A stretch of DNA of 64,000 bases, taken from NCBI GenBank assembly GCA_025056455.1, contig JANWVY010000004.1, positions 62,001-126,000 on the forward strand, written 5' to 3'. Shown in pieces: positions 5,097 through 61,500 of this stretch (position 1 is its first letter; the number at the start of each line of letters is the position of its first letter). This DNA is from Bryobacteraceae bacterium (GTDB lineage: Bacteria > Acidobacteriota > Terriglobia > Bryobacterales > Bryobacteraceae). The position numbers and the translations under genes were made by a program. The notes under the pieces were generated by a model. It was not told where the DNA came from and made no database searches. It saw only the letters and a list, made by a program, of their open reading frames with translations.

Positions 5097-6020
5097 ATGG
5101 TGATGGTTGGCGCCATATTCTTACTTTCGCTTGCCGTGATGGTCGGGATCGGCACTCTCGGTCTACGCTTTTGGGTACGCCCGCGGGAAGCCATGGAGCG
5201 AGTGGCGGGACTGGGAATGGCGGGTCCAGAAGCTCCGCCGCCGCACCCCAGTCTGGCTTTCCGTGACATCCTTCTGAAGCTCGGCAAGTATGTTCCCCAA
5301 TCGCCCAAAGACGTGAGCGTGATGCAGCGCCGGCTCATCCGGGCAGGCTACCGCAAGCCGAACGCGCTGATGATCTTCTACGGGGCGAAGCTGTTCTGCG
5401 CCCTTGTGTTTCCGCTCATTACCTCGTACTTCATCTTGAGCGCCGACACCGATTCCAGCAATAAGGTCTTGGGCCTTGCTGCCTCCGTGGGTTTGGGATT
5501 TTTTGGTCCCAACGAGTTTGTCAATTTTCAGGCGCGGCGGCGCCAGAAGCAGATTCGGCGAGGCTTGCCCAATGCGCTTGACCTGATGGTGGTGTGCGTC
5601 GAGTCGGGGCTCGGTCTCGATCAAGCGATCTTGCAGGTGGCCAAAGAGCTCGAGCATGCCCACCCAGAGATCAGCGAAGAATTTGCGCTGGTGAACTACG
5701 AGCTTAAGGCGGGCAAGCGCCGCGCCGAGGCGCTGCGCAATATGGCCGAACGCACAGCGGTAGACGATCTCAAGAAACTAGTCGCGGTGCTGATTCAAGC
5801 CGACCGGTTCGGTACTGGCATTGCGCAGTCGCTCCGCGCGCATGCCGATTATATGCGCGTACAGGCCCGGCAAATTGCTGAGGAAAAGGCCGCCAAGCTG
5901 GGCGTCAAGCTGGTCTTTCCGATCTTTTTCTGTATTTTGCCGACGCTGTTTGTGGTGACGGTTGGGCCGGTCGTGGTGAAGATCATCAGGGAGCTGATCC
6001 CCATGATGAATAACATTTAG
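5097..6020 (+). CDS. tadC: TadC, type II secretion F-family membrane platform protein
   Basis: Second inner-membrane platform subunit of the Tad machine, predicted to pair with TadB. The T2SSF domain is visible as ALDLMVVCVESGLGLDQAIL through LIQADRFGTGIAQSLRAHAD, with a closing hydrophobic helix (FPIFFCILPTLFVVTVGPVVV). A TTG frame from 5082 overlaps tadB; ATG 5097, 4 bp after the tadB stop, is the better start. About 308 residues, normal for TadC. It is the last recognisable tad gene on the right. No Flp pilin, TadV peptidase, CpaB or TadD/G gene is in the window. Confidence 0.92.
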   Translation: MVMVGAIFLLSLAVMVGIGTLGLRFWVRPREAMERVAGLGMAGPEAPPPHPSLAFRDILLKLGKYVPQSPKDVSVMQRRLIRAGYRKPNALMIFYGAKLFCALVFPLITSYFILSADTDSSNKVLGLAASVGLGFFGPNEFVNFQARRRQKQIRRGLPNALDLMVVCVESGLGLDQAILQVAKELEHAHPEISEEFALVNYELKAGKRRAEALRNMAERTAVDDLKKLVAVLIQADRFGTGIAQSLRAHADYMRVQARQIAEEKAAKLGVKLVFPIFFCILPTLFVVTVGPVVVKIIRELIPMMNNI

Positions 6021-6126
6021 CGACAAGTTCGCAAGCGTCTTTGCAAGTTGTAGAAGACGCAAGCGTACTCCCAGGGCCGATTCCGTGGCGCTGGGAAACG
6101 CAAACCCGTGGGAAAGGAGAATGGCG

Positions 6127-6219
6127 ATGGACAGTTCGATGATCCGGATTGTGTGCGCAATCTTGGCGGCACTGTTTTTAGGGCTGATCGTGATGCGCCG
6201 CAAAAAGAATGCCGAGTGA
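6127..6219 (+). CDS. Small single-pass membrane peptide (30 aa)
   Basis: Short reading frame with a strong Shine-Dalgarno (GGAAAGGAGA, 6111-6120) placed 6 nt before ATG 6127; an in-frame ATG at 6121 would abut the Shine-Dalgarno and is unlikely. The product is one hydrophobic helix (IRIVCAILAALFLGLIVM) followed by the basic tail RRKKNAE, the normal inside-positive layout. It is too short for a Flp pilin and lacks the pilin processing site. It starts 107 bp after tadC and may be a small accessory protein of the Tad operon, but nothing in the sequence proves a link. Real translation is likely from the ribosome site; function unknown. Confidence 0.5.
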   Translation: MDSSMIRIVCAILAALFLGLIVMRRKKNAE

Positions 6220-6455
6220 CGGCGAAAGTCTTCGGCGCTTTGGGAGGTGATGGCCAAGCGGGCGGAGGAGCCGCATAGCAAATACAGCGGCTCCTTCCAC
6301 TGCGCTTGGTGCGAATGGCACTGGGCCAGTACGTCGGAAAGGCTCCTTGCGAAGTGCAGTTCGCAAAGCAGGTGTTGCGGCCACGGTCCCAAGCTTAAAC
6401 GCGGTTGGCTTGGGCGGCCGAAAAAAAGATGGAGATCGATTTTGGAGCAGATGGT

Positions 6456-16497: not shown

Positions 16498-16528
16498 GCA
16501 GAGACGCGGGAAACCTGTGTCGCTCTGC
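16498..16528 (+). promoter_or_regulatory. 5' leader hairpin upstream of the PEP-CTERM gene
   Basis: GCAGAG then ACGCGGG, an AAA loop, CCTGTGT, a two-base bulge and CTCTGC form a stem of 13 pairs (two or three G-U). It would occupy almost the first nucleotides of the transcript and leaves the GGAGG ribosome site (16546-16550) free. A 5'-end stabiliser is one reading; no known riboswitch was recognised. Confidence 0.4.
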
Positions 16529-16555
16529 GTCGTTGATTGCGTCTCGGAGGTTCGG

Positions 16556-17206
16556 ATGAAACTTTTCTTTTTGACTGCCTTGACGAGCCTTGGCTTGCAG
16601 GCAGCCACGATTACATTTGGTCCAATATCCCAAGCGGGCGGATATAACCCGGGCGAGCAGACTTCCTTCTCGCTAACGATCTCGCTGCCTCAGTTTAACC
16701 CCACCCTGGGTTTCCTCACTTCGGTCCAAATCTTGGTGGAAACCCAGATGAACCGCAGCGGCGACATGGTAAACAACGGGTCCAACGCCGCGCCGATGAG
16801 TTATTCCTACACTCTGGCTAGCATTAGCGTGACGGGCCTGGGAGTGAGCCATGTCCAAAACGGAAGTGTTGCGTTTACTTCAGGTGAGGTTTTTCCGTCG
16901 GTGCCAGGTAATGGTGGAACCCAGAACATCACCCCGCTCCAAGAATTTTCGAGCGGGACCTACATCCCTGCTCCGATTCTTTTCATTGGCTTCGGTAACG
17001 TGAATTACACAGTTGCAGGTTCTGCAATCCTGAATACCGGTTGTGGAAGTGGAAACTGCCAGACGAACATCGCCACCCTGATGGGCGCCCGAATGACGGT
17101 TACCTACACTTATGACCCAGCGGGTGGGGAAATCCCCGAGCCGACCACATTTGCTTTATTTGGACTTGGCTTGGCGGGATTGGGCCTTCTCAGGCGGCGG
17201 AGCTAA
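16556..17206 (+). CDS. PEP-CTERM sorting-domain protein
   Basis: Secreted protein of about 216 residues. The N-terminus is a signal peptide (LFFLTALTSLGLQA) and the C-terminus has the exosortase-type anchor: PEPTTFALFGLG, a hydrophobic helix and the basic end RRRS. The body is beta-rich and low in charge, with a possible disulfide pair in TGCGSGNCQT. The start is ATG 16556 because GGAGG lies 5 nt upstream; a longer frame to 16517 begins inside the leader hairpin. PEP-CTERM proteins are processed by exosortase in species making exopolysaccharide; the exosortase gene is not in this window. The function of the body is unknown. Confidence 0.88.
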   Translation: MKLFFLTALTSLGLQAATITFGPISQAGGYNPGEQTSFSLTISLPQFNPTLGFLTSVQILVETQMNRSGDMVNNGSNAAPMSYSYTLASISVTGLGVSHVQNGSVAFTSGEVFPSVPGNGGTQNITPLQEFSSGTYIPAPILFIGFGNVNYTVAGSAILNTGCGSGNCQTNIATLMGARMTVTYTYDPAGGEIPEPTTFALFGLGLAGLGLLRRRS

Positions 17207-17771: not shown

Positions 17772-17953
17772 AAAAGGCATGATTTGGAGAAGCAATCTAC
17801 AGGGAGGCCCTGCCTCGGCCCATTGTTCGGCGCTCGATCAGCTCGGTCTGCTCGAGTAAATCTTCTTTCCGGCATCCCTTGTCACCCTGTAGCTCGCTGC
17901 CCCCTTTGCAGGGCGTCCAGGACTTAGTGCAAAGGTCGCAAAGAGCGAATCTG

Positions 17954-17962
17954 TGATATCAT
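17954..17962 (+). promoter_or_regulatory. Extended -10 promoter for the ECF sigma gene
   Basis: TGATATCAT fits TGnTATnnT. A start near 17969 would give a leader of about 60 nt to ATG 18028 and rules out the GTG at 17953 as initiator. Confidence 0.38.
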
Positions 17963-18027
17963 ATGAGGCCGGTCGGTGTCCGCTGGCAGCGCCTGGGCGA
18001 AACCGGATCGCCACGGAATGCGTCGGT

Positions 18028-18699
18028 ATGGGCATGAGTGGGCTGACAAACGTTCTTCCGTTCCCTGCTACGGTCGCAAAACCCCGCGCGAAGACAAAAG
18101 TGGAGAACCGATATACAGATGAAGCGCTTCTTGTGAAGCGGGTTCAGGCGCGCGACGAACTGGCGTTTCGGGAAATCGTTGAGCGTTATCAGGCCAAGGT
18201 CTACTCGATTATTTACGGAATCCTCCGGAACCGGAACGACGCGGAAGACATCGCCCAGCAGGTGTTCTCCAAGGTTTATTTCTCCATTGGCAGCTTCGAT
18301 TCGCGCAGTTCCCTACTTACCTGGATCTACAAGATTACGGTCAACGAGTGCTACGACTACCTGCGCAAGAAGCGAGTTCGGAAGCTGGTGTACGAGAGCG
18401 ACTTTTCTGAAGAGGACACTCGTCGGATGGAGAACTCCGAGGCCGTCACTGCCACAGAAGCGGCTGTCGATGATACCCTAGCCCGGCGAGACTTGGCCAT
18501 CAAGTTACTGGAAAAGTTGTCCGAGGAGGACCGTCAGTTGATCTTGCTCAAGGAAGTAGACGGGCACTCGGTTGAGGAACTGGCGCAAATGACCGGCATG
18601 AATGAGAATACAATTAAAGTAAAATTATTCCGAGCCCGGCAGAAGCTCTTTAAAGCGTCTCAACGCCTGTTCCGAGGGGGAAGGCCGGCTACCGTTTGA
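18028..18699 (+). CDS. ECF (extracytoplasmic function) RNA polymerase sigma factor
   Basis: Sigma-70 family protein of about 223 residues. Region 2 is visible as ELAFREIVERYQAKVYSIIY through NDAEDIAQQVFSKVY and LLTWIYKITVNECYDYLRKK. Region 4 is the HTH LSEEDRQLILLKEVDGHSVE, then MNENTIKVKLFRARQKL. A spacer rich in Glu/Asp/Thr joins them. ATG 18028 is preferred over the GTG 17953 frame because an extended -10 sits at 17954-17962. The next two genes are an anti-sigma factor and an LTPEQ periplasmic protein, so it probably serves an envelope-stress regulon. RpoE-like in layout; target promoters unknown. Confidence 0.92.
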   Translation: MGMSGLTNVLPFPATVAKPRAKTKVENRYTDEALLVKRVQARDELAFREIVERYQAKVYSIIYGILRNRNDAEDIAQQVFSKVYFSIGSFDSRSSLLTWIYKITVNECYDYLRKKRVRKLVYESDFSEEDTRRMENSEAVTATEAAVDDTLARRDLAIKLLEKLSEEDRQLILLKEVDGHSVEELAQMTGMNENTIKVKLFRARQKLFKASQRLFRGGRPATV

Positions 18700-18865
18700 C
18701 GCCCCGTTCCACGAGGCGTCCGGAGCGTTTTCTAGGAGTGATTGGGATGGTCGCTCACAACAAATGGAATCAAAAACACAATCAGGCGGCCAGTCACAGG
18801 AAAGCACATCACGGGCGGAGACAACTCCGCCGTTTTGGTTGGACAGACTGAGAAGGGAAGAGCAT

Positions 18866-19321
18866 ATGTGCCCGATTACCCGGGATGGACTTGAAGGATA
18901 CCTGGCAGGCAAGCCCGATCCCCGGCTTCAACAACACCTTGCTCAATGCCGAGAGTGCAGAGAAACCGCGACGCAATTCCTTGCCGTCGCGGAGATGGTT
19001 CGGTCCTTGCGGCCGGCCGAACTGTTAGAACCTGCCCCAGGCTTCTATGGCCGCGTTATGGACCGGATTGAGTCCCAAAGAAGCAGCTCGATTTGGAGCG
19101 TGTTTCTTGAACCGCTGTTTGCGAAACGTCTGGTTTACGCTTCCGTGATTTTAACGCTTTTCCTGGGAATCATGCTGTTTACGAGCCCGAAGGACGAAGC
19201 GGTGCATCTGTCTAGTACCCCGGAGCATATCCTTGTCGAGGAGCAGCCTCCGGTGAGTCTAGTGAACGTGGATCAGGATCGGAATACGGTTTTCGTGCAA
19301 TTAACCACTTACCAGGAGTAG
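18866..19321 (+). CDS. Membrane-anchored zinc-finger anti-sigma factor
   Basis: About 151 residues. The cytoplasmic N-terminus has the zf-HC2 pattern: an early Cys (MCPITRDGLEGYLAGK) and then HLAQCREC, giving C...HxxxCxxC. One membrane helix follows (LVYASVILTLFLGIMLFTS), then a short periplasmic tail. ATG 18866 is chosen because AAGGGAAG lies 5 nt upstream and the domain begins at once; the frame can extend to ATG 18764, which lacks a ribosome site and would add 34 polar residues. It would hold the ECF factor encoded just upstream inactive until an envelope signal triggers release. Confidence 0.8.
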   Translation: MCPITRDGLEGYLAGKPDPRLQQHLAQCRECRETATQFLAVAEMVRSLRPAELLEPAPGFYGRVMDRIESQRSSSIWSVFLEPLFAKRLVYASVILTLFLGIMLFTSPKDEAVHLSSTPEHILVEEQPPVSLVNVDQDRNTVFVQLTTYQE

Positions 19322-19347
19322 CGAAACATCACCAGGAGAAACGAAAC

Positions 19348-19725
19348 ATGGCAGACCACCGGATGACGTGGCAAAACCCACGGATCCTGTGTATCCTTCT
19401 GCTTGTTTTTCTTTGCGGCGCGACGGCTGGGGCGCTGGCCATGCGGTTTGGCTCGTCTTCAAGCCCCCGCCGCGTTTCGAGCTACTGGCAAGAGGGCGGG
19501 AAAGAGATCTCCATCGAACGCTTCCGGCGAGAACTGAATCTGACTCCGGAACAGGCCCAGCAGATGGAAACGATTCTCAACGACTTCATGATGTATTACC
19601 AGCAGGTGAAAGATCAGCTGGACAACGTTCGGGCCGACGGCAAAGCCAAGATTCTTCAGATTCTCAGCGACGAGCAAAAACAAAAATTCGTCCGCATGCT
19701 GCAGGAAACGAAACAGAACCGCTAA
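19348..19725 (+). CDS. Periplasmic LTPEQ (Spy/CpxP/CnrX-like) protein
   Basis: 125 residues with one N-terminal membrane or signal helix (ILCILLLVFLCGATAGALAM) and a helical periplasmic body containing RRELNLTPEQAQQMETILND and QILSDEQKQKFVRMLQE, the hallmark of the Spy/CpxP and CnrX/ZraP groups. Such proteins act as periplasmic chaperones or metal sensors for the linked sigma/anti-sigma pair. AGGAG lies 11 nt before ATG 19348. It is the third gene of the sigma cluster. Whether it binds metal is not evident. Confidence 0.78.
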   Translation: MADHRMTWQNPRILCILLLVFLCGATAGALAMRFGSSSSPRRVSSYWQEGGKEISIERFRRELNLTPEQAQQMETILNDFMMYYQQVKDQLDNVRADGKAKILQILSDEQKQKFVRMLQETKQNR

Positions 19726-19761: not shown

Positions 19762-19790
19762 TTGAACGCCGCAGAACGCGGTGATATTCT
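19762..19790 (+). promoter_or_regulatory. Promoter of the candidate non-coding RNA
   Basis: TTGAAC (19762-19767) and TATTCT (19785-19790) are spaced by exactly 17 bp, and TG one base before the -10 makes it an extended type. It is the best-formed promoter I found in the window. Transcription should start near 19797. Confidence 0.65.
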
Positions 19791-19796
19791 AGGCTT

Positions 19797-20002
19797 GCGT
19801 GGATTGATTTAGATTGCCTCAACCGTCCGCGCTCTCCAGGGTGGGATCCCTCAATGTGAGGCAACAAGTTCCCTCCCCGGACACGTGCGCTGGCGGCCAG
19901 AGGCAGTTGGCTACTTGCAACCACGTTAAAAAAAGTGCTAAAGGCGGGCCAGATCAGAAGCGATAACCCCTGAGGGCCCTCCGATTGGAGGGCTTTTTCT
20001 TT
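19797..20002 (+). ncRNA. Candidate structured non-coding RNA (6S-like rod), about 205 nt
   Basis: A complete transcription unit with no convincing reading frame: promoter (19762-19790), structured body, terminator. The body folds as one long interrupted hairpin. CGTGG (19798-19802) pairs CCACG (19921-19925); an asymmetric internal loop follows; TTGCCTC pairs GAGGCAG; CCG-CC-GCGC pairs GCGC-GG-CGG; GGGTGGGA pairs TCCCTCCC with one mismatch; and CCTCA-ATG-TGAGG caps it. A rod with internal loops resembles 6S RNA, the RNA-polymerase decoy, but I do not recognise its conserved core and the length of the closed rod (about 130 nt) is short. SRP RNA, tmRNA and RNase P motifs are absent. It could also be a lineage-specific sRNA linked to the sigma module upstream. 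Confidence 0.5.
19976..20002 (+). terminator. Rho-independent terminator of the candidate non-coding RNA
   Basis: GCCCTCC (19976-19982), loop GATT, GGAGGGC (19987-19993), then TTTTTCTTT. A textbook intrinsic terminator. Confidence 0.85.
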
Positions 20003-20040
20003 GCTCACTGGCCACGCTGGACGCAGCAGGAGAATGAACG

Positions 20041-20358
20041 ATGAGCGTCTGGCAGACCCCATCCACCTTTCCCGTCCTCCAAGGAGTTGAGGGTGACTTA
20101 CTGTCGTTGCGAGTCACCGTCGAAGCCCATCTCTTAGAAGAGCTTTTGGAGACACTTGCGGAGGCGCCCTTTCCCATTAACCCAGAAATCGAACATCATG
20201 CCGAGCTGGTTGAGAACGGTAAGTCTACCGCAGCCGTTCATGTCGAGTTTCCCGTGTGGCGCTTGCGTGTGCCTGAGTTGCGGGCAGCGCTTGAAGCCCG
20301 GGGCTTCCGTCACATCCGTGTCCGGAGCATGTTCGAAGAGATCACACAGGAGGGCTAG
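20041..20358 (+). CDS. Conserved-looking small cytoplasmic protein, unknown function
   Basis: 105 residues without signal peptide or membrane segment, mixed alpha/beta in appearance (LRVTVEAHLLEELLETLAEA; STAAVHVEFPVWRLRVPELR). AGGAGAATGA places a ribosome site close to ATG 20041. It starts 38 bp after the non-coding RNA terminator and ends 56 bp before the addB-like gene, so it may be first in the nuclease operon. I do not recognise a family. Confidence 0.6.
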   Translation: MSVWQTPSTFPVLQGVEGDLLSLRVTVEAHLLEELLETLAEAPFPINPEIEHHAELVENGKSTAAVHVEFPVWRLRVPELRAALEARGFRHIRVRSMFEEITQEG

Positions 20359-20414: not shown

Positions 20415-23051
20415 GTGATCCTTTTTCGCTCTGCCGAGGCGCTGGTCGACGATCCTCTGGAGCTGTATTCCCGTGAGCCGAACTGCTGCCTGCTGACGCC
20501 CACGGCCACTCTGGCCGAGCATCTCCGGCACGCCATCGCGCGCCAAGGTGTGGTCGTACGGCCGGACAGCATCGTTACGCTCTCGCGGTTTGTTGAACCC
20601 TGGGTCGCAGATCTTTATCCCGCCTCGAAGTCTACTCTGCGGTGGTTGATCCGCGAGGAGCTCCGCAGAGAACCGCCCGCCGAGTTTCGCGCTCTCGCTG
20701 ACTCCCCAGGTCTTGAAACACTACTAGCTTCCCTGCTTGAGGAGCTCTCGGGAGCGGACTGCACCCCCGAGCTGATTGAAGGTCTCGCCCCAGCGAGCGT
20801 GCAAGGCATCTATGCCCGGCTCTCCAGCCGACTGGACGAGCAAGGATGGTATCTCCGCTCTAGGCGCCTGCATCTGGCTGCCCAACGCATGCGAAACGCC
20901 GAGCCCCGTTTTCGGGCCTTCGCGGTGACCGGATTCTACTCGTTCACGCCTTCCGAATGTGACGTCTTGGAAACATTTCTAGGGCGTCCCGTAGCAATTC
21001 GTTTGGAGGAATCCTCCTTTTCGGTGGAAACAGAGGGAAAACTTGCCGGACTCGGGCTCCTTGCCCGCCGCCAAGAAGAGGATCGCGCCCAGGAAGCGAG
21101 TTCTGTTCTGGTCGCTGCTCCCAACATGGCGTTGGAGGCGGATGAAATCGCGCGCCGAATTCTGAAGGAGGTTGCCAGCGGAAGACGCTACCGCGAATTG
21201 GGTGTGGTTTTGCGGAGAGAACGACCCTACGCACCTCTCCTTACCACGACCTTCCGCCGCTACCAGATCCCCGCACGGTTTTATTTCCAGCAGAAGCTCC
21301 GGGATCACGCCGTGACGCGTTACTTGCTGTCAATCCTGGAAGCCGCCGAGCAGGGCTGGAACTACGAGGCGCTCCGCCGCGTGCTTGGGAGCAGGTATTC
21401 GGGTTTTGGCGCCAGCGCCAGGGGCGATGAACTTTCGAATTGGTTGCTCCGCCACGCTCCGGCGTCTGGCCTGCCAGAGGCCCTTAGGCGGCTAGAGCGC
21501 TTCACGTCTTGGCTCCACGACGTACGTACTCCGGAGCAGTGGAATGAAGCGCTGCTTTCCTTGCTGGATGAACTGGTTCTTCCCGCGACAGAAGACCGTG
21601 TGAGCCACGAGCAGGCTCTTGAGTGGAGGAACCTCGCAGCTGCTATCAGGGGATGGGAACAGGCACTCGAAGAGACAGCGCGGTTGCTGTCCTGTTTCGG
21701 GTCCAAAGACCGTGTGTCTTTGGCCGAATTCCGGTCCTGTTTGGAAGTTGTGCTTGCGGAAGCGTCCCTTCCAGCTTCAGACCAGCGTCGGGATGTCGTT
21801 CATGTAATCGATGCCTACGAGGCGAGGCAATGGCGGCTCCCAGTGATTTTTATCTGTGGGCTTACCGAGCGTCATTTTCCTCAGTACCATGCAGAGCATC
21901 CCTTGCTTGGCGACCAAGCGCGATTCGAACTTCGAAAAACGGGACATACCCTGCGCACATCTCAAGAACGCCAGCAGGAAGAAAGCTTCCTTTTTCAAAC
22001 CGCTTGCCGGGCGGCGACCGAAAAGCTCATTCTCTCTTATCCGGAAGCCAATGAACGGGGCGAGGAACTGTTGCGCTCGCTCTTCCTGAACCGGCTACTT
22101 GTTCGCAGCGCCGAACGCGCAGTGGCTGTGCGTCCCCGAGTGTTTTGGCCGGCGCCCCCTAGCCCTCCGTCGGGCAGATTGTGCCGAGAGAGCCTACCGC
22201 TGATCCGTTCTGCCCGCACGTCCCTTTCGCCGACCTCCATTGAGGTTTTTCTGCAATGCCCGTTTCAGTTTTTTGCATCGCGGCTGCTTCGTCTCGAAGG
22301 CCCTCCGCCAAGGCCAGAAGAGCGCCTTGACCATCTCCTTCAGGGTGAGATCATCCACCGTGCGCTTGCTGAGTTTGAAAGAAGTCCCATTTTTGCCGAA
22401 GAGCTCCTCACCAGACTCCTCGAAGAGACTTTCGAGCAACATCACATTCCTGCCACTTGTGACACGGAACAAGTCCGGCTCGCGCTGACCGCAAATCTGA
22501 AGCGTTTTCTCCAGAGCGCTCCGCTTCAAGGCGGTCGTACTCTAGCCGTGGAAAGACCTTTTGCCTTCAAATTCGGAGCCTTTCGCCTGCAGGGCAAGAT
22601 CGACCATGTCCTGGAAGTGCCCCAGCGCGGCATTGTCGTAATCGATTACAAGTATTCGTCTCGCCAGAAAATTCGAGACCGCATCCGCGCCACCGAACGG
22701 GGGGAATTGGTGCAAGGGGGGCTCTATTTGTGGGCGGCTCAGAAGTTACTTCAGAAACGGCCAGCCGGTATTCTCTATTGCGGACTGAAGGGGGAGATTT
22801 CCTGGCAGGGATGGCACATTCCGATTCTGGGCTGGCAAGATGTAGGGGAAACACTCGAGGCGAGTTCCCTCGGCGAGCGGATCCAGGATGCCGTACAAAC
22901 CGCGCAGGCTGTGGCCGAGCGAATTCTCGCAGGAGAATTTGCCCCGGATCCCGCCGATCGCCGCAAATGCGGGCTATGCGACTTCCGAGATGTCTGTCGT
23001 GTGGAAACGCTCGCCGCTTCCCGCACACTTGCCGCAAACGCAAGCTTGTGA
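20415..23051 (+). CDS. AddB-like helicase-nuclease subunit with Fe-S PD-(D/E)XK nuclease
   Basis: 878 residues. The long N-terminal part is a degenerate helicase-like region (PTATLAEHLRHAI; VVHVIDAYEARQWRLPVIFICG). The C-terminus is a RecB-type nuclease: GEIIHRALAEF, LQGKIDHV...VVIDYKYS (about residue 722) and QGGLYLWAA. Four cysteines frame it as in AddB: LQCPFQFFASRLL (about 614) and CGLCDFRDVC (CX2CX5C, about 852), the 4Fe-4S signature. The start is GTG 20415. The partner helicase begins 15 bp downstream. Together they should resect double-strand ends for RecA-dependent repair. It is shorter than B. subtilis AddB. Confidence 0.85.
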   Translation: MILFRSAEALVDDPLELYSREPNCCLLTPTATLAEHLRHAIARQGVVVRPDSIVTLSRFVEPWVADLYPASKSTLRWLIREELRREPPAEFRALADSPGLETLLASLLEELSGADCTPELIEGLAPASVQGIYARLSSRLDEQGWYLRSRRLHLAAQRMRNAEPRFRAFAVTGFYSFTPSECDVLETFLGRPVAIRLEESSFSVETEGKLAGLGLLARRQEEDRAQEASSVLVAAPNMALEADEIARRILKEVASGRRYRELGVVLRRERPYAPLLTTTFRRYQIPARFYFQQKLRDHAVTRYLLSILEAAEQGWNYEALRRVLGSRYSGFGASARGDELSNWLLRHAPASGLPEALRRLERFTSWLHDVRTPEQWNEALLSLLDELVLPATEDRVSHEQALEWRNLAAAIRGWEQALEETARLLSCFGSKDRVSLAEFRSCLEVVLAEASLPASDQRRDVVHVIDAYEARQWRLPVIFICGLTERHFPQYHAEHPLLGDQARFELRKTGHTLRTSQERQQEESFLFQTACRAATEKLILSYPEANERGEELLRSLFLNRLLVRSAERAVAVRPRVFWPAPPSPPSGRLCRESLPLIRSARTSLSPTSIEVFLQCPFQFFASRLLRLEGPPPRPEERLDHLLQGEIIHRALAEFERSPIFAEELLTRLLEETFEQHHIPATCDTEQVRLALTANLKRFLQSAPLQGGRTLAVERPFAFKFGAFRLQGKIDHVLEVPQRGIVVIDYKYSSRQKIRDRIRATERGELVQGGLYLWAAQKLLQKRPAGILYCGLKGEISWQGWHIPILGWQDVGETLEASSLGERIQDAVQTAQAVAERILAGEFAPDPADRRKCGLCDFRDVCRVETLAASRTLAANASL

Positions 23052-23066
23052 ACCCCTTCGATTCGC

Positions 23067-26000
23067 ATGTTGAGCCCTTCACAACGCGCCGCAGTTGAAC
23101 GTTGGGGCCAGGATGTTTGCGTGGTTGCCGGTCCGGGTTCGGGCAAAACCCGCGTCTTGATTGAGCGCTATCGCTGGCTCATGGAACAGCGCCAGATCGC
23201 ACCTCACCGTATCCTAGCCGTTACGTTCACTGAGAAAGCAGCAACCGAAATTAAGAAGCGGTTGATGGACGCTTTCTCCGACTCGCAAACCATCCGGGAA
23301 GACCTTGAGCGGGCCTGGATTTCCACCATCCACGGCTTCTGCACCCGTCTGTTAAGAGAGCACGCCATGGCTGCGGGCATCGACCCTGACTTTCGTGTGC
23401 TTGATGAGGCGGAAGCTCGAAACCTGCTTCGCCAGTGCGCCCAGCAAGCCTTAGACCATCAACTCCAGCAGCAGCCAGCTCGGATGCGCCAATTCCTCCA
23501 AGAATTCCATGGCGGCGGCGTCGACCTCGCGACGGCTGTCATCGCGGTGTACGAGGAGGCCCGAAGTGCTGGCGTGCCGGTGGAGTCGATTCAATCGCCC
23601 CGTCCCTCGGATCTGAATCCTTGGGAAAAACTCCTGGCGCAGGTTCACATCATCCTGGCGGATCCACCAACAGGCACGCTCAAGCAGCGCGAGGCACATC
23701 TGAAGATGCAGGACTGGGCCCGCGCTGTCCTCCATCTATCCTCAGACTGCGACTGGTTGCGCCAAATCGACCTGCTCCTTCAATTGCCCCGACCAAGCGC
23801 CCTCAAGATGGGCGTCCGCGCTCGCAGCGCAGCGCAGCAACTGCGCGACAGCGTGCTGGCAGAAGTGGTGGGAGAGATCGTCCTCCGCAAGCACCTCAAC
23901 CTGTATCCGGTCTTGCTGGAAGTAATCTCTGGAATGCACCGCGAGTACGCTGCCCGGAAACGACAGAAAGCGGTGCTCGACTTTGAAGATCTGCAAGAAA
24001 TCGCTATCCGCCTTCTCGAATCGCAATCCGCTATCCGGGCTAAGGTGCGCGACAGTTTTGACCATGTGCTGATGGATGAGTTGCAGGACACCAATTATCT
24101 GCAATGGCGGCTCATCGAGCTCGTCCGCAAGCCAGATTGTCTTTTCATGGTCGGCGATGTTAATCAATCGATTTACTCCTTCCGCCACGCCGGGCCCGCC
24201 GTCTTTCAGAAGTACCGAGACGAACTGATCGCTTCTGGCAGAATTGTGGACGAACTTCGGGAAAACTACCGCAGCCGCCCGGATGTGATCGACGTGATCA
24301 ACACCGTCAGCCCCTATCTCATCGCAGGAGTCGAACCCCACCGGCTCCTCGCGCAGAGCGCCTATGATCGAAAAGACTCCCCCTGTGTCGAATTTCTTCA
24401 CACCTATGCGGCGCGGGAAGAGGATGATCCGGTCCGCACGGAAGCCCGTTGGATTGCACGGCGAATTCGCGAGATTGAAGGACGCGAGCAGATTGGAAGA
24501 CAGGGCGAACGGCGGCCGGCGCGATTCTCCGACATCGCTGTTCTTACCCGGACCATCGCTGGGCTAGCCCCCATTCAAGCAGCGCTCGACGAGTTTGGGA
24601 TTCCCTGCTTGGTGAGCGGTGGAAGATCGTTTTATGAAACACGCGAAGTTCGCGACCTTGTGGCCTATCTCGCGGTACTGGCCAATCCGCTAGACGAAAT
24701 CAGCCTGGCTGTTGTGCTTCGATCTCCCCTCGTTTCCATTTCCGATGACACCCTACTTTGGCTTAAATTTCAGTCTTCTCCGGACTCAACGCCGAATCTC
24801 GCTCGAGCGATTGAACAAGGCCTAGCCCAAAATACGGTCCCGTCCCCAGATCGAGAGCGGCTTGGATGGTTCTGGCGTCTGGTGAAAGCCCACCGTTCGC
24901 ATCTGGATTCGCTAACGCCCGATACCTTTCTGGCTCAAATCGTGGATGAATCGGGTTACCAGACGGGCTTATCGGCCCGCGCGCGGGCCAACATCGCCAA
25001 GCTCTATGCCATGGTCCGAGAATGGGCGCTTGAAAAACGTTATCCACTTTTCGAGCTTGTGGACGAACTCAAACAGCGGCGGCTTGCGCAATCCGAACCG
25101 GAAGCAGCGGTGACGGAATCGGCGAATTGCGTTCACTTAATGTCTGTACATGCGGCGAAGGGCCTGGAGTTTCCCATTGTCTTTGTTGCGGCCCTGCGAA
25201 GTACTGGCCAAAACCGAAGGCCGCCGGTTTGTCTGGATGAACAGCATGCGATTGGGGTGGCGTGGCGACATCCCCTCTCACAAGAGGCCCTTTCTGATTC
25301 CGTACATCTCCGGGTCAGCAACCAGCGCCGGCAGCAGGAGAAAGCGGAAGAAGACCGGTTGCTCTATGTGGCGATGACCCGCGCGGCGGACCGGCTCATT
25401 TTTACGGCCTCGCCGGTTGGTCTAGGTGACTGGGCCAAGCAGGTCGCAGAGGCACTTCAGCTGCCTGCGACCATCCCCCGGGAAGAATCGCAACACATCA
25501 CCTATACGCCGGGCGGAACCGCTGTCAAGGTCATTTTCACAAGCGAGGCAGCAGAGGAAGCAATCCGTTGGCCCGGCCTTCCGCTGGCCCCACGCCAAGA
25601 AGCCCAGCAACTTGATCGCATTCCTTCTGCTGAACAGTACGACGCTACCGTCGCCGTCACCGCGGTTGCGCAGTTTGCTCTTTGCCCGCGACAGTACTAC
25701 TTGGCCCGTTACTTGCGCTGGCCTGCCCGAAACGCGGCCAGTCAACAACGCTTTGTTATGAATCCCCCAAGATGGGATCTCGAAGAGCAACCAGATACGG
25801 ATCTGGCGGCGGATGAACTTGGGGTCCTGGTTCACGATTTGCTCGCGGGCAAACCACGACCAGACGCTACCGAGCAGGCGAGGGCCTTGGCCCGGGGATT
25901 TCAAACGAGCGCCCTGGGGCGTCGATTGCGGCGAGCTCTTCGCCAGGAACATGAATTCGATTTCATGATGGAGGTCGAGGGTATGATTCTTCGCGGGCAA

Positions 26001-26390
26001 ATCGACCTTTGGTTTGAAGAGGGCGGCGAACTGTTGTTAGTCGACTTCAAAAGCGATGATGTCGAAAAAGGTCAACAGTGGTGGCACGCACAGCGTTACC
26101 ACACGCAAATCCAGCTTTATTCCTTGGCGCTCGAGCGACTATTGGGTCGGTACCCCAACCAGGCGATTCTTTGGTATTTACGGACGCAGGAAGCGGTTCC
26201 GGTTTCGCTCGATGCTGTTCAGATCGATAAGGCCCGCCGCCAGGTTCGCGCTCTCCGAGAGGCTCAGAATCTGGTGCAGTTTCCACTGCGGGAGGGCCCG
26301 CACTGTCTTCGCTGTCGTTATTATCGGGGAGCATGCCCGTCCCTCTATGTTGCCTGTAATGCGGACCTCGTCGAGCCGGTTCAAGCCTGA
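23067..26390 (+). CDS. AddA-like UvrD/Rep helicase with Fe-S PD-(D/E)XK nuclease
   Basis: 1107 residues. UvrD-type helicase motifs run from Walker A (VVAGPGSGKTRVLIERY, about residue 21) through TFTEKAATEIKKR, DHVLMDELQDTNYLQ (motif II), VGDVNQSIYSFRHA and LMSVHAAKGLEFPIVFV to YVAMTRAADRLIF. The C-terminal nuclease has GVLVHDLLAG, LRGQIDLW...LLLVDFKSDD (about 991) and QIQLYSLAL. Cysteines at FALCPRQYYLARYL (about 871) and CLRCRYYRGAC (CX2CX6C, about 1078) give the Fe-S nuclease pattern normally described for AddB, not AddA. It starts at ATG 23067, 15 bp after the AddB-like gene. This is the engine of end resection; the Chi-like site cannot be predicted. Confidence 0.9.
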   Translation: MLSPSQRAAVERWGQDVCVVAGPGSGKTRVLIERYRWLMEQRQIAPHRILAVTFTEKAATEIKKRLMDAFSDSQTIREDLERAWISTIHGFCTRLLREHAMAAGIDPDFRVLDEAEARNLLRQCAQQALDHQLQQQPARMRQFLQEFHGGGVDLATAVIAVYEEARSAGVPVESIQSPRPSDLNPWEKLLAQVHIILADPPTGTLKQREAHLKMQDWARAVLHLSSDCDWLRQIDLLLQLPRPSALKMGVRARSAAQQLRDSVLAEVVGEIVLRKHLNLYPVLLEVISGMHREYAARKRQKAVLDFEDLQEIAIRLLESQSAIRAKVRDSFDHVLMDELQDTNYLQWRLIELVRKPDCLFMVGDVNQSIYSFRHAGPAVFQKYRDELIASGRIVDELRENYRSRPDVIDVINTVSPYLIAGVEPHRLLAQSAYDRKDSPCVEFLHTYAAREEDDPVRTEARWIARRIREIEGREQIGRQGERRPARFSDIAVLTRTIAGLAPIQAALDEFGIPCLVSGGRSFYETREVRDLVAYLAVLANPLDEISLAVVLRSPLVSISDDTLLWLKFQSSPDSTPNLARAIEQGLAQNTVPSPDRERLGWFWRLVKAHRSHLDSLTPDTFLAQIVDESGYQTGLSARARANIAKLYAMVREWALEKRYPLFELVDELKQRRLAQSEPEAAVTESANCVHLMSVHAAKGLEFPIVFVAALRSTGQNRRPPVCLDEQHAIGVAWRHPLSQEALSDSVHLRVSNQRRQQEKAEEDRLLYVAMTRAADRLIFTASPVGLGDWAKQVAEALQLPATIPREESQHITYTPGGTAVKVIFTSEAAEEAIRWPGLPLAPRQEAQQLDRIPSAEQYDATVAVTAVAQFALCPRQYYLARYLRWPARNAASQQRFVMNPPRWDLEEQPDTDLAADELGVLVHDLLAGKPRPDATEQARALARGFQTSALGRRLRRALRQEHEFDFMMEVEGMILRGQIDLWFEEGGELLLVDFKSDDVEKGQQWWHAQRYHTQIQLYSLALERLLGRYPNQAILWYLRTQEAVPVSLDAVQIDKARRQVRALREAQNLVQFPLREGPHCLRCRYYRGACPSLYVACNADLVEPVQA

Positions 26391-61424: not shown

Positions 61425-61500
61425 TGGTGGACGGCGTGGGGATCGAACCCACGACCTCAGCATTGCGAACGCTGCGCTCTCCCAACTGAGCTAGCCGCCC
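61425..61500 (-). tRNA. tRNA-Ala (anticodon CGC)
   Basis: Full cloverleaf on the minus strand: acceptor GGGCGGC/GCCGTCC, D arm GCTC-AGTTGGGA-GAGC, anticodon arm CAGCG-TTCGCAA-TGCTG (anticodon CGC, reads GCG), variable AGGTC, T arm GTGGG-TTCGATC-CCCAC, discriminator A. The 3' CCA is encoded (61425-61427). The G10-T40-type wobble at the bottom of the anticodon stem is acceptable. Confidence 0.96.

What the first reader, a model, noticed from the sequence alone, without database searches (positions are those of the whole stretch)
19762..20002. Self-contained structured RNA gene beside an ECF sigma cluster
A near-ideal extended promoter (17-bp spacing), an interrupted long hairpin closed by CGTGG/CCACG and a textbook terminator, with no convincing coding frame. 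The rod with internal loops is 6S-like, but the conserved 6S core is not recognised. It could be a divergent 6S RNA or a new small RNA of an envelope-stress regulon.
Basis: partly seen in the sequence, partly recalled or inferred. Interest (0 to 1): 0.62.

Follow-up and report, generated by a model that had tools for sequence, protein, structure and literature searches.

The report
SAM-II riboswitch controlling PII-like gene
The structured RNA is not a free-standing small RNA but very probably a metabolite-sensing switch (S-adenosylmethionine, SAM-II class) with an extra hairpin, which in a group of Acidobacteria sits in front of a small, undescribed signalling-type protein instead of the usual methionine genes.

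Summary
In detail: promoter, interrupted hairpin closed by CGTGG/CCACG and terminator are there, and relatives keep them. It is the 5' leader of the ORF at 20041-20358: a SAM-II-class riboswitch with a hairpin inserted in loop L1, then an intrinsic terminator. The window's L1 segment is 102 nt; in 71 relatives 19-36 nt. Rfam's SAM-II model hits the orthologous RNA in 16 of 16 loci given (two at or above cut-off; the window's own copy stays below), and a model built without the window finds it at 62.9 bits. The nucleotides reported as SAM-II binding pocket are conserved. Of 72 loci encoding the downstream protein, 71 carry the RNA just upstream; in seven the aptamer runs into the ribosome-binding site. 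Other families of the phylum have short SAM-II RNAs before methionine genes. The controlled protein (mostly 90-150 aa, no Pfam family, PII-like predicted fold) was found in 24 of 37 genomes of the window's family and 0 of 24 others. Most likely mechanism: OFF by termination when SAM is high. SAM binding, direction of control and protein function are inferred, not shown.

The parts
19762..19790 (+). promoter: -35 TTGAAC, 17-nt spacer, extended -10 TGA-TATTCT
   Evidence: sequence; extended -10 motif in 54 of 72 leaders; not found by the strict scan
19795..19958 (+). SAM-II-class aptamer with enlarged L1 (whole RNA-model match, flanks included)
   Evidence: model R2, built without the window, 62.9 bits, the only match in 64 kb; RF01726 26.7 bits at 19894-19951
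19798..19802 (+). P1, 5' strand CGTGG
   Evidence: pairs with 19921-19925; GTGG/CCAC invariant in 70 distinct sequences
19806..19811 (+). GATTTA: third strand of the major-groove triplex (G8-A13 in metX SAM-II numbering)
   Evidence: U11, U12, A13 72 of 72; U10 71; G8 68
19812..19908 (+). hairpin inserted in L1, 97 nt here; the whole L1 segment is 19-36 nt in 71 relatives
   Evidence: fold z -3.12; lengths; covariation of the shorter hairpin in the alignment
19910..19918 (+). P2 pseudoknot 5' side: GCU (P2a, 19910-19912) and UUGC (U20 U21 G22 C23, 19915-19918)
19921..19925 (+). P1, 3' strand CCACG
19926..19934 (+). A-rich L3
   Evidence: sequence; A-rich in the aligned relatives
19937..19945 (+). 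P2 pseudoknot 3' side GCTAAA-GGC (G42 to A47, then GGC)
   Evidence: G42-A47 72 of 72
19943..19952 (+). outer stem 5' strand GGCGGGCCAG; overlaps the P2a strand; can also pair with the terminator's 5' arm (possible antiterminator)
   Evidence: outer stem: own pairs -17.17 against swapped -15.07 kcal/mol, 0 of 5000 permutations; antiterminator weak, 205 of 5000
19972..19997 (+). intrinsic terminator hairpin, T tract to about 20002
20008..20018 (+). outer stem 3' strand CTGGCCACGCT
20028..20032 (+). Shine-Dalgarno AGGAG
   Evidence: sequence
20041..20358 (+). controlled ORF, 105 aa, predicted PII-like (ferredoxin-like) protein

Best explanation
The element is the leader of the 105-aa gene at 20041-20358. 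Transcription starts near 19797, at the foot of P1. [quoted passage not shown] A hairpin is inserted at the short turn between the triplex strand and P2. When SAM is high it is bound, the pseudoknot closes, the stretch just 3' of GCUAAA is held in P2a, and the terminator at 19972-19997 forms; a leader of about 204 nt is released. When SAM is low that stretch is free to pair with the terminator's 5' arm or, after read-through, with 20008-20018, and the gene is expressed. Shown by computation: class membership by sequence and structure, conservation of the pocket, coupling to the gene, promoter motif, terminator, outer stem. Inferred: SAM as ligand, OFF direction, antiterminator, start and end of the transcript, function of the protein. 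The protein is probably a small PII-like regulator acting in SAM/methionine homeostasis.
For: RF01726 hits the motif in 16 of 16 relatives' loci given (of 23 held): 46.3 and 44.0 bits in two (cut-off 44), 36.9-43.1 in 13, 25.8 in one (L022, 3' part only); and in 23 of the 24 gene-bearing genomes (the window's own was missed, I think because of the long insert). R2 without the window: 62.9 bits, E 1.7e-15. Pocket nucleotides U11 U12 U20 U21 G22 G42 C43 U44 A45 A46 A47 in 72 of 72, U10 and C23 in 71, the list being that of PMC3764141 (passages). 71 of 72 loci with the gene have the RNA upstream. In seven of 71 the ATG stands right at the aptamer's 3' end, four of these with AAAGGAG as SD. Elsewhere in the phylum short SAM-II RNAs precede Met genes: 9 of 10 downstream proteins given matched homocysteine/methionine enzyme families at E 1e-20 or better. 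Promoter just before P1, terminator before the ORF and OFF logic are described for SAM-II (PMC1273637 section 11).
Against: The window's copy alone scores 26.7 bits, under Rfam's cut-off of 44, and the hit covers only the 3' half. P1 hardly varies, so it gives no covariation, and P2a is short with a U-G wobble and one changed-both-sides pair. The antiterminator has weak support: 205 of 5000 permutations; pairing probability 0.3 or more in 31 of 56 leaders whether or not P2 is locked, lowered by locking in 21 and raised in 7 (window 0.80 free, 0.63 locked). One relative (L025) lacks A46. The target is not a known methionine gene. No ligand-binding or expression data.
Confidence: 0.85

Rival explanations
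1. It is a stand-alone, trans-acting small RNA gene; the downstream ORF is incidental.
For: Own promoter motif and terminator; in Sinorhizobium terminated leaders of SAM-II riboswitches are found as sRNAs (RZ, RA1/RA2; PMC9373788 abstract), so the terminated leader could also act in trans.
Against: The RNA precedes the same gene in 71 of 72 loci and keeps it in different gene neighbourhoods; in seven loci there is no room for a terminator and it runs into the SD.
Confidence: 0.06
2. It is a SAM-II-like pocket that has changed ligand (SAH, or an adenylated SAM derivative).
For: The controlled gene is not a known methionine gene; PII-like folds bind adenyl nucleotides and, in phage SAM lyase and SAM-AMP lyase, SAM compounds (PMC7877911, PMC12255297 passages).
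Against: The uridines reported to face the sulfonium (U11, U21) and U44, A47, G22 are unchanged in 72 of 72.
Confidence: 0.08
3. It is a divergent 6S RNA.
For: A long rod with internal loops.
Against: No RF00013 match here up to E 10; a 6S candidate lies elsewhere in the genome; the rod is an insert absent from 71 relatives in a conserved pseudoknot.
Confidence: 0.01
4. It is a SAM-II riboswitch but an ON switch, or one acting mainly on translation or RNA stability.
For: The outer stem can form only after read-through and so cannot decide termination (inference); dual effects are reported for SAM-II in Sinorhizobium (PMC9373788 abstract).
Against: Terminators in 56 of 65 long leaders; in seven loci the P2a strand is or touches the SD, which predicts OFF by occlusion.
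Confidence: 0.1

Closest known systems
SAM-II riboswitch, Rfam RF01726 (SAM-II long loops) and RF00521 (SAM_alpha, metA element)
   Same: P1, GATTTA third strand, UUGC/GCUAA pseudoknot, A-rich L3, promoter just before P1, terminator before the ORF
   Different: hairpin inserted in L1 (97 nt in the window); GTGG/CCAC of P1 invariant; outer stem around the terminator; target a PII-like gene instead of a known Met gene
SAM-V riboswitch
   Same: core superposes on SAM-II (PMC6061858 section 12)
   Different: SAM-V carries its P3 stem-loop after the 3' strand of P1; here the extra hairpin is in L1 and only an A-rich stretch follows P1
PII / PII-like proteins (GlnK, CPII, SbtB, PstA, PotN, DUF3240)
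   Same: predicted beta-alpha-beta-beta-alpha-beta fold; Z 10.9 to 3ce8 (rmsd 4.3, 87 aligned), 10.7 to CPII 5d4n_B (rmsd 2.2, 83 aligned)
   Different: 8-20% identity in the rows shown; no Pfam, NCBIfam or PDB sequence match of note; short turn between strands 2 and 3 in the model; own invariant residues FPxNP and FP
Phage SAM lyase / SAM-AMP lyase
   Same: PII-like architecture and a SAM-type ligand there (papers)
   Different: no sequence match to a solved chain except one unrelated at E 0.16; the glutamate of strand 3 (E69 in the window) is D, R, T, Q or A in some relatives

Membership tests
SAM-II riboswitch | P1 stem and P2 pseudoknot in H-type order | tested here: met
   P2 with P2a 98.4% of cells paired, P1 88.6%, over 70 distinct sequences; P1 and the P2 core hardly vary, so they give no covariation
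SAM-II riboswitch | conserved pocket U10-U12, U20-C23, G42-A47 | tested here: met
   all present in the window; 71-72 of 72 at each; list from PMC3764141
SAM-II riboswitch | Rfam RF01726 score (a detection threshold rather than a defining trait) | tested here: inconclusive
   window copy 26.7 of 44 bits, not reached; orthologues L019 46.3 and L024 44.0 reach it, 14 of 16 given do not
SAM-II riboswitch | leader of a gene of methionine/SAM metabolism | tested here: inconclusive
   leader of a gene, yes; the protein's function is unknown
SAM-II riboswitch | binds SAM | not testable with these tools
   needs in-line probing or ITC
6S RNA (RF00013) | match to the 6S model | tested here: not met
   not among matches up to E 10
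SAM-V riboswitch | P3 stem-loop after the 3' strand of P1 | tested here: not met
   only an A-rich stretch there in the aligned sequences; feature from PMC6061858 section 12
PII-like protein superfamily (the ORF) | ferredoxin-like fold close to PII structures | tested here: met
   model pLDDT 85.4; best Z 10.9, most of the top rows PII or PII-like; a common fold, so kinship is not proved
PII-like protein superfamily (the ORF) | trimer with ligand at the subunit interface | not testable with these tools
   no complex prediction or assay available
SAM lyase family (the ORF) | sequence relation and catalytic glutamate | tested here: inconclusive
   no sequence match to a solved lyase; no invariant glutamate in strand 3

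The most novel reading that the evidence does not exclude
The controlled protein is itself a PII-like sensor or modifier of SAM (or of a SAM-derived adenylate), so that RNA and protein form a two-layer SAM homeostasis circuit particular to this group of Acidobacteria; and the window's 97-nt L1 hairpin tunes the switch or carries a second function in the released leader.
Probability: 0.25. Interest if true: 0.78.

Novelty: new variant of a known kind. Interest (0 to 1): 0.6.

Why it matters
SAM-II RNAs are described as controllers of methionine and SAM genes (PMC1273637). Here 24 of 37 sampled genomes of one bacterial family put their only recognised SAM-II RNA before an undescribed PII-like protein, while SAM-I was found in 1 of the 37, a genome without the gene. 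That makes a role for an orphan protein family directly testable (SAM metabolism), suggests that a small pseudoknot aptamer tolerates a long hairpin at its tightest turn, and offers natural pairs of terminator-type and SD-type platforms on the same gene.

Tried and rejected
6S RNA: rejected. Other sub-threshold Rfam matches in the stretch (AaHKsRNA20, ctRNA_p42d, Phe_leader) lie on or run into the terminator and were not pursued; RF00521 also matched weakly (16.8 bits, E 0.18). A second RF01726 match in the genome (C25:269931-269989, 19.2 bits, E 0.95) looks like chance and was not studied. ECF-sigma link: rejected as the main link, since RNA and ORF also occur in other neighbourhoods. AddAB link: related genes in 19 of 73 loci, same reason. 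My ORF calling is crude (greedy, GC-rich DNA) and gives lower bounds.

Antiterminator: tested by swapping partners between loci; weak (205 of 5000). These permutations do not remove relatedness between loci; the reversed-segment controls gave 3945 and 698 of 5000. The 'blocked' half had no effect (the constraint was not applied); repeated with hard constraints. Structure from the single sequence was poor (pLDDT 62.3), replaced by the alignment model. The viral fold library gave nothing specific. No SAM lyase stood in the 50 fold rows shown; that excludes nothing. Protein on plasmids: no match. Protein family in 396 genomes of the phylum: only the window's own (the listing shows three genomes of the window's family).

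Limits of the counts. In one search the number of pairs changed on both sides (6) is no higher than in shuffles (mean 6.0, 382 of 500); the support lies in cells changed on both sides (76 against 37.2, 0 of 500), pair types (24 against 19.7, 2 of 500) and the covariation score (0.231 against 0.135, 0 of 500), on an alignment fitted to the model. Of the 71 RNA-bearing loci at least 17 have the contig lengths of loci used to build model R1, so they are not independent of it. The collection scan needs one conserved peptide pattern and misses relatives without it. Alignment A2 used 13 of 23 relatives plus the window. Six of 72 protein loci (L078, L114, L128, L139, L142, L146) were left out of A4; the first five look close to kept ones by eye, L146 has no RNA. 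Nine of 65 long leaders had no terminator by my score and were left out.

Print: searches and 77 of the held library listed no paper that I recognised as reporting this RNA-gene pair or a hairpin-bearing L1 variant in Acidobacteria; most listed papers I saw only in the listing. Rfam's SAM-II long-loop family comes from PMC2864571 (passages only), whose supplements I did not read.

Full report
What is there. The strict promoter scan found none, but the extended -10 motif is kept in 54 of 72 leaders against 1.18 expected in shuffles, ending 5-7 nt before the aligned RNA start. At Rfam's gathering scores the element has no match; the window's only match is a tRNA at 61428-61500. At relaxed thresholds the best-scoring match is the SAM-II riboswitch (RF01726), 26.7 bits, E 0.0041, at 19894-19951, which covers only the 3' half.

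Relatives. A DNA search of 61 whole genomes gave matches in 51 at E up to 1. The 23 relatives with E 2.0e-4 or lower all match within query 141-194, that is window 19902-19955. Around each of these and in the window a pattern search finds GTGG, GATTTA (AATTTA in L022), a variable segment, TTGCAACC, an A run and GCTAAAGG (GCTACAGG in L025). Rfam's SAM-II model hits this motif in 16 of 16 loci given, of 23 held, two at or above its cut-off; in L022 only the 3' part. Over the same 61 genomes RF01726 finds 23 of the 24 (not the window's own) plus G058, a genome of another family. A covariance model from the 23 relatives without the window finds the window at 19795-19958 with 62.9 bits, the only match in 64 kb.

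Why the window's copy was hard to see. Between the triplex strand GATTTA and the base before TTGC the window has 102 nt, 71 relatives 19-36 (median 26). A 97-nt hairpin fills it; the stretch 19811-19913 folds with z -3.12. This is the 'rod' that looked like 6S. In SAM-V, whose core superposes on SAM-II, a 3-nt turn stands at this place (PMC6061858 section 12), so an insert there is sterically plausible (inference). In relatives the shorter hairpin is supported by covariation: 76 cells changed on both sides against 37.2 in shuffles and a covariation score of 0.231 against 0.135 (sd 0.010), 0 of 500 each, and lower in every slid version (all of the both-sides changes are in this helix). The bare number of pairs changed on both sides (6) does not exceed the shuffles (382 of 500), and the alignment was fitted to the model.

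Pocket. PMC3764141 (passages) lists U10-U12, U20-C23 and G42-A47 as fully conserved in SAM-II, with U11 and U21 facing the sulfonium, U44 the adenine and A47 the methionine part. In 72 aligned sequences (71 relatives plus window) U11, U12, U20, U21, G22, G42, C43, U44, A45, A46 and A47 are invariant, U10 and C23 in 71. L025, not among these 72, has C at A46. P2a is short: GCU with GGC; its outer pair is GC in 56, GU in 8, AU in 2 and unpaired in 6 of 72.

The controlled gene. In all 24 genomes the RNA is followed on the same strand by a homologue of the 105-aa ORF 20041-20358 (for L020 one search printed another frame, its homologue is). The protein profile finds exactly these 24 of 61 genomes: 24 of the 37 of the window's family, 0 of the 24 others. 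In a collection of 84,980 species a pattern scan found 72 loci that encode it, all with Acidobacteria-type titles, 29 of them naming Bryobacterales, Bryobacteraceae or Bryobacter. The RNA lies just upstream in 71 of them (53.2 bits or more); the exception, L146, has a broken-looking ORF start. At least 17 of the 71 are the same contigs, by length, as loci used to build the model. From this match the window is most likely from Bryobacterales (inference). In 396 genomes drawn from the phylum the protein was found only in the window's own (three of the family listed).

Two platforms. In 64 of 71 relatives the ATG is 60-130 nt after the RNA match (start codons chosen by my script). With the window, 56 of 65 such leaders have a terminator by my score. 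In seven (L108, L119, L123, L125, L133, L137, L138) the ATG follows the aptamer directly and the AAAGG of P2a is, or adjoins, the Shine-Dalgarno sequence. Both arrangements fit an OFF switch. The stretch just after GCUAAA also pairs with a segment between terminator and SD: own partners -17.17, swapped -15.07 kcal/mol, 0 of 5000 permutations over 56 leaders (reversed control 698 of 5000; relatedness of loci not removed). The antiterminator is only weakly supported (205 of 5000): pairing probability 0.3 or more in 31 of 56 leaders with P2 free or locked, 39 of 56 in a control block.

Methionine link. Searching 396 genomes of the phylum with the RNA model gave 23 with matches, one of them the window's own. 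Of 30 loci that I examined, 25 showed a short-loop SAM-II pattern near the match; L040, L042, L058, L061 and L148 did not, and L044 gave no ORF. Of 24 downstream ORFs I gave ten to NCBIfam: nine matched methionine synthase, homocysteine methyltransferase, homocysteine synthase, cystathionine gamma-synthase-type or MetX families at E 1e-20 or better, several below the curated cut-offs (most of the ORFs are cut by the locus end); one (L045) matched none. In the 37 genomes of the window's family SAM-I was found in one (G026), which lacks the gene.

The protein. No Pfam match over its cut-off and no NCBIfam match; scanning 67 members gave scattered weak matches, the most frequent in 7 of 67 with best E 4.4e-5 (Pro-kuma_activ); the only PDB sequence match is at E 0.16. 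The model (pLDDT 85.4, pTM 0.73) is beta-alpha-beta-beta-alpha-beta. Foldseek's best rows are PII and PII-like proteins, E 1.0e-3 at best; VIA-align gives Z 10.9 (3ce8, DUF3240) and 10.7 (CPII). PII-like folds include SAM lyase and SAM-AMP lyase (PMC7877911, PMC12255297, passages), which suggests a SAM compound as ligand, but no sequence or residue evidence shows it.

Mechanism and verdict. By analogy with the metA element, for which a promoter at P1, terminators and OFF logic are described (PMC1273637 section 11), the most likely working is termination at high SAM. The released leader of about 204 nt would look like a small RNA in RNA-seq; in Sinorhizobium such products are reported as sRNAs (PMC9373788 abstract). 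This is a variant of a known riboswitch class with an unusual target.

Noticed in passing
L001 (G000:C11:786028-786225, - strand): Candidate true 6S RNA of this genome, RF00013 35.6 bits, E 2.6e-5, below the 46.4-bit cut-off.
   Followed up: no
window 17953-19725: ECF sigma factor, a protein with weak zf-HC2/anti-sigma matches and a small protein with weak LTXXQ/Spy matches in a row; relatives of the sigma gene in 30 of 73 loci.
   Followed up: partly
window 20415-26390: AddB-like and AddA-like helicase-nuclease pair directly after the controlled ORF; related genes in 19 of 73 loci.
   Followed up: partly
window 16517-17206: ORF ending in a PEP-CTERM-like sorting signal (motif recalled, sequence).
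   Followed up: no
G000:C25:269931-269989 (L033): Second, very weak RF01726 match in the same genome, 19.2 bits, E 0.95, probably chance.
   Followed up: no
L146, around 6001-6336: The one locus of 72 with the gene but no RNA match; the ORF start looks broken, possibly a decaying copy.
   Followed up: no
L035-L063: Short-loop SAM-II RNAs before metH, homocysteine synthase, metX and related genes in other families of the phylum.
   Followed up: partly
L092:6629-8074; L124:7260-9191; L114:6651-8468: Other neighbours of the controlled gene: a Memo-AMMECR1 protein, a threonyl-tRNA synthetase-like protein, and a 422-aa protein without Pfam match followed by a methyltransferase-like protein.
   Followed up: no
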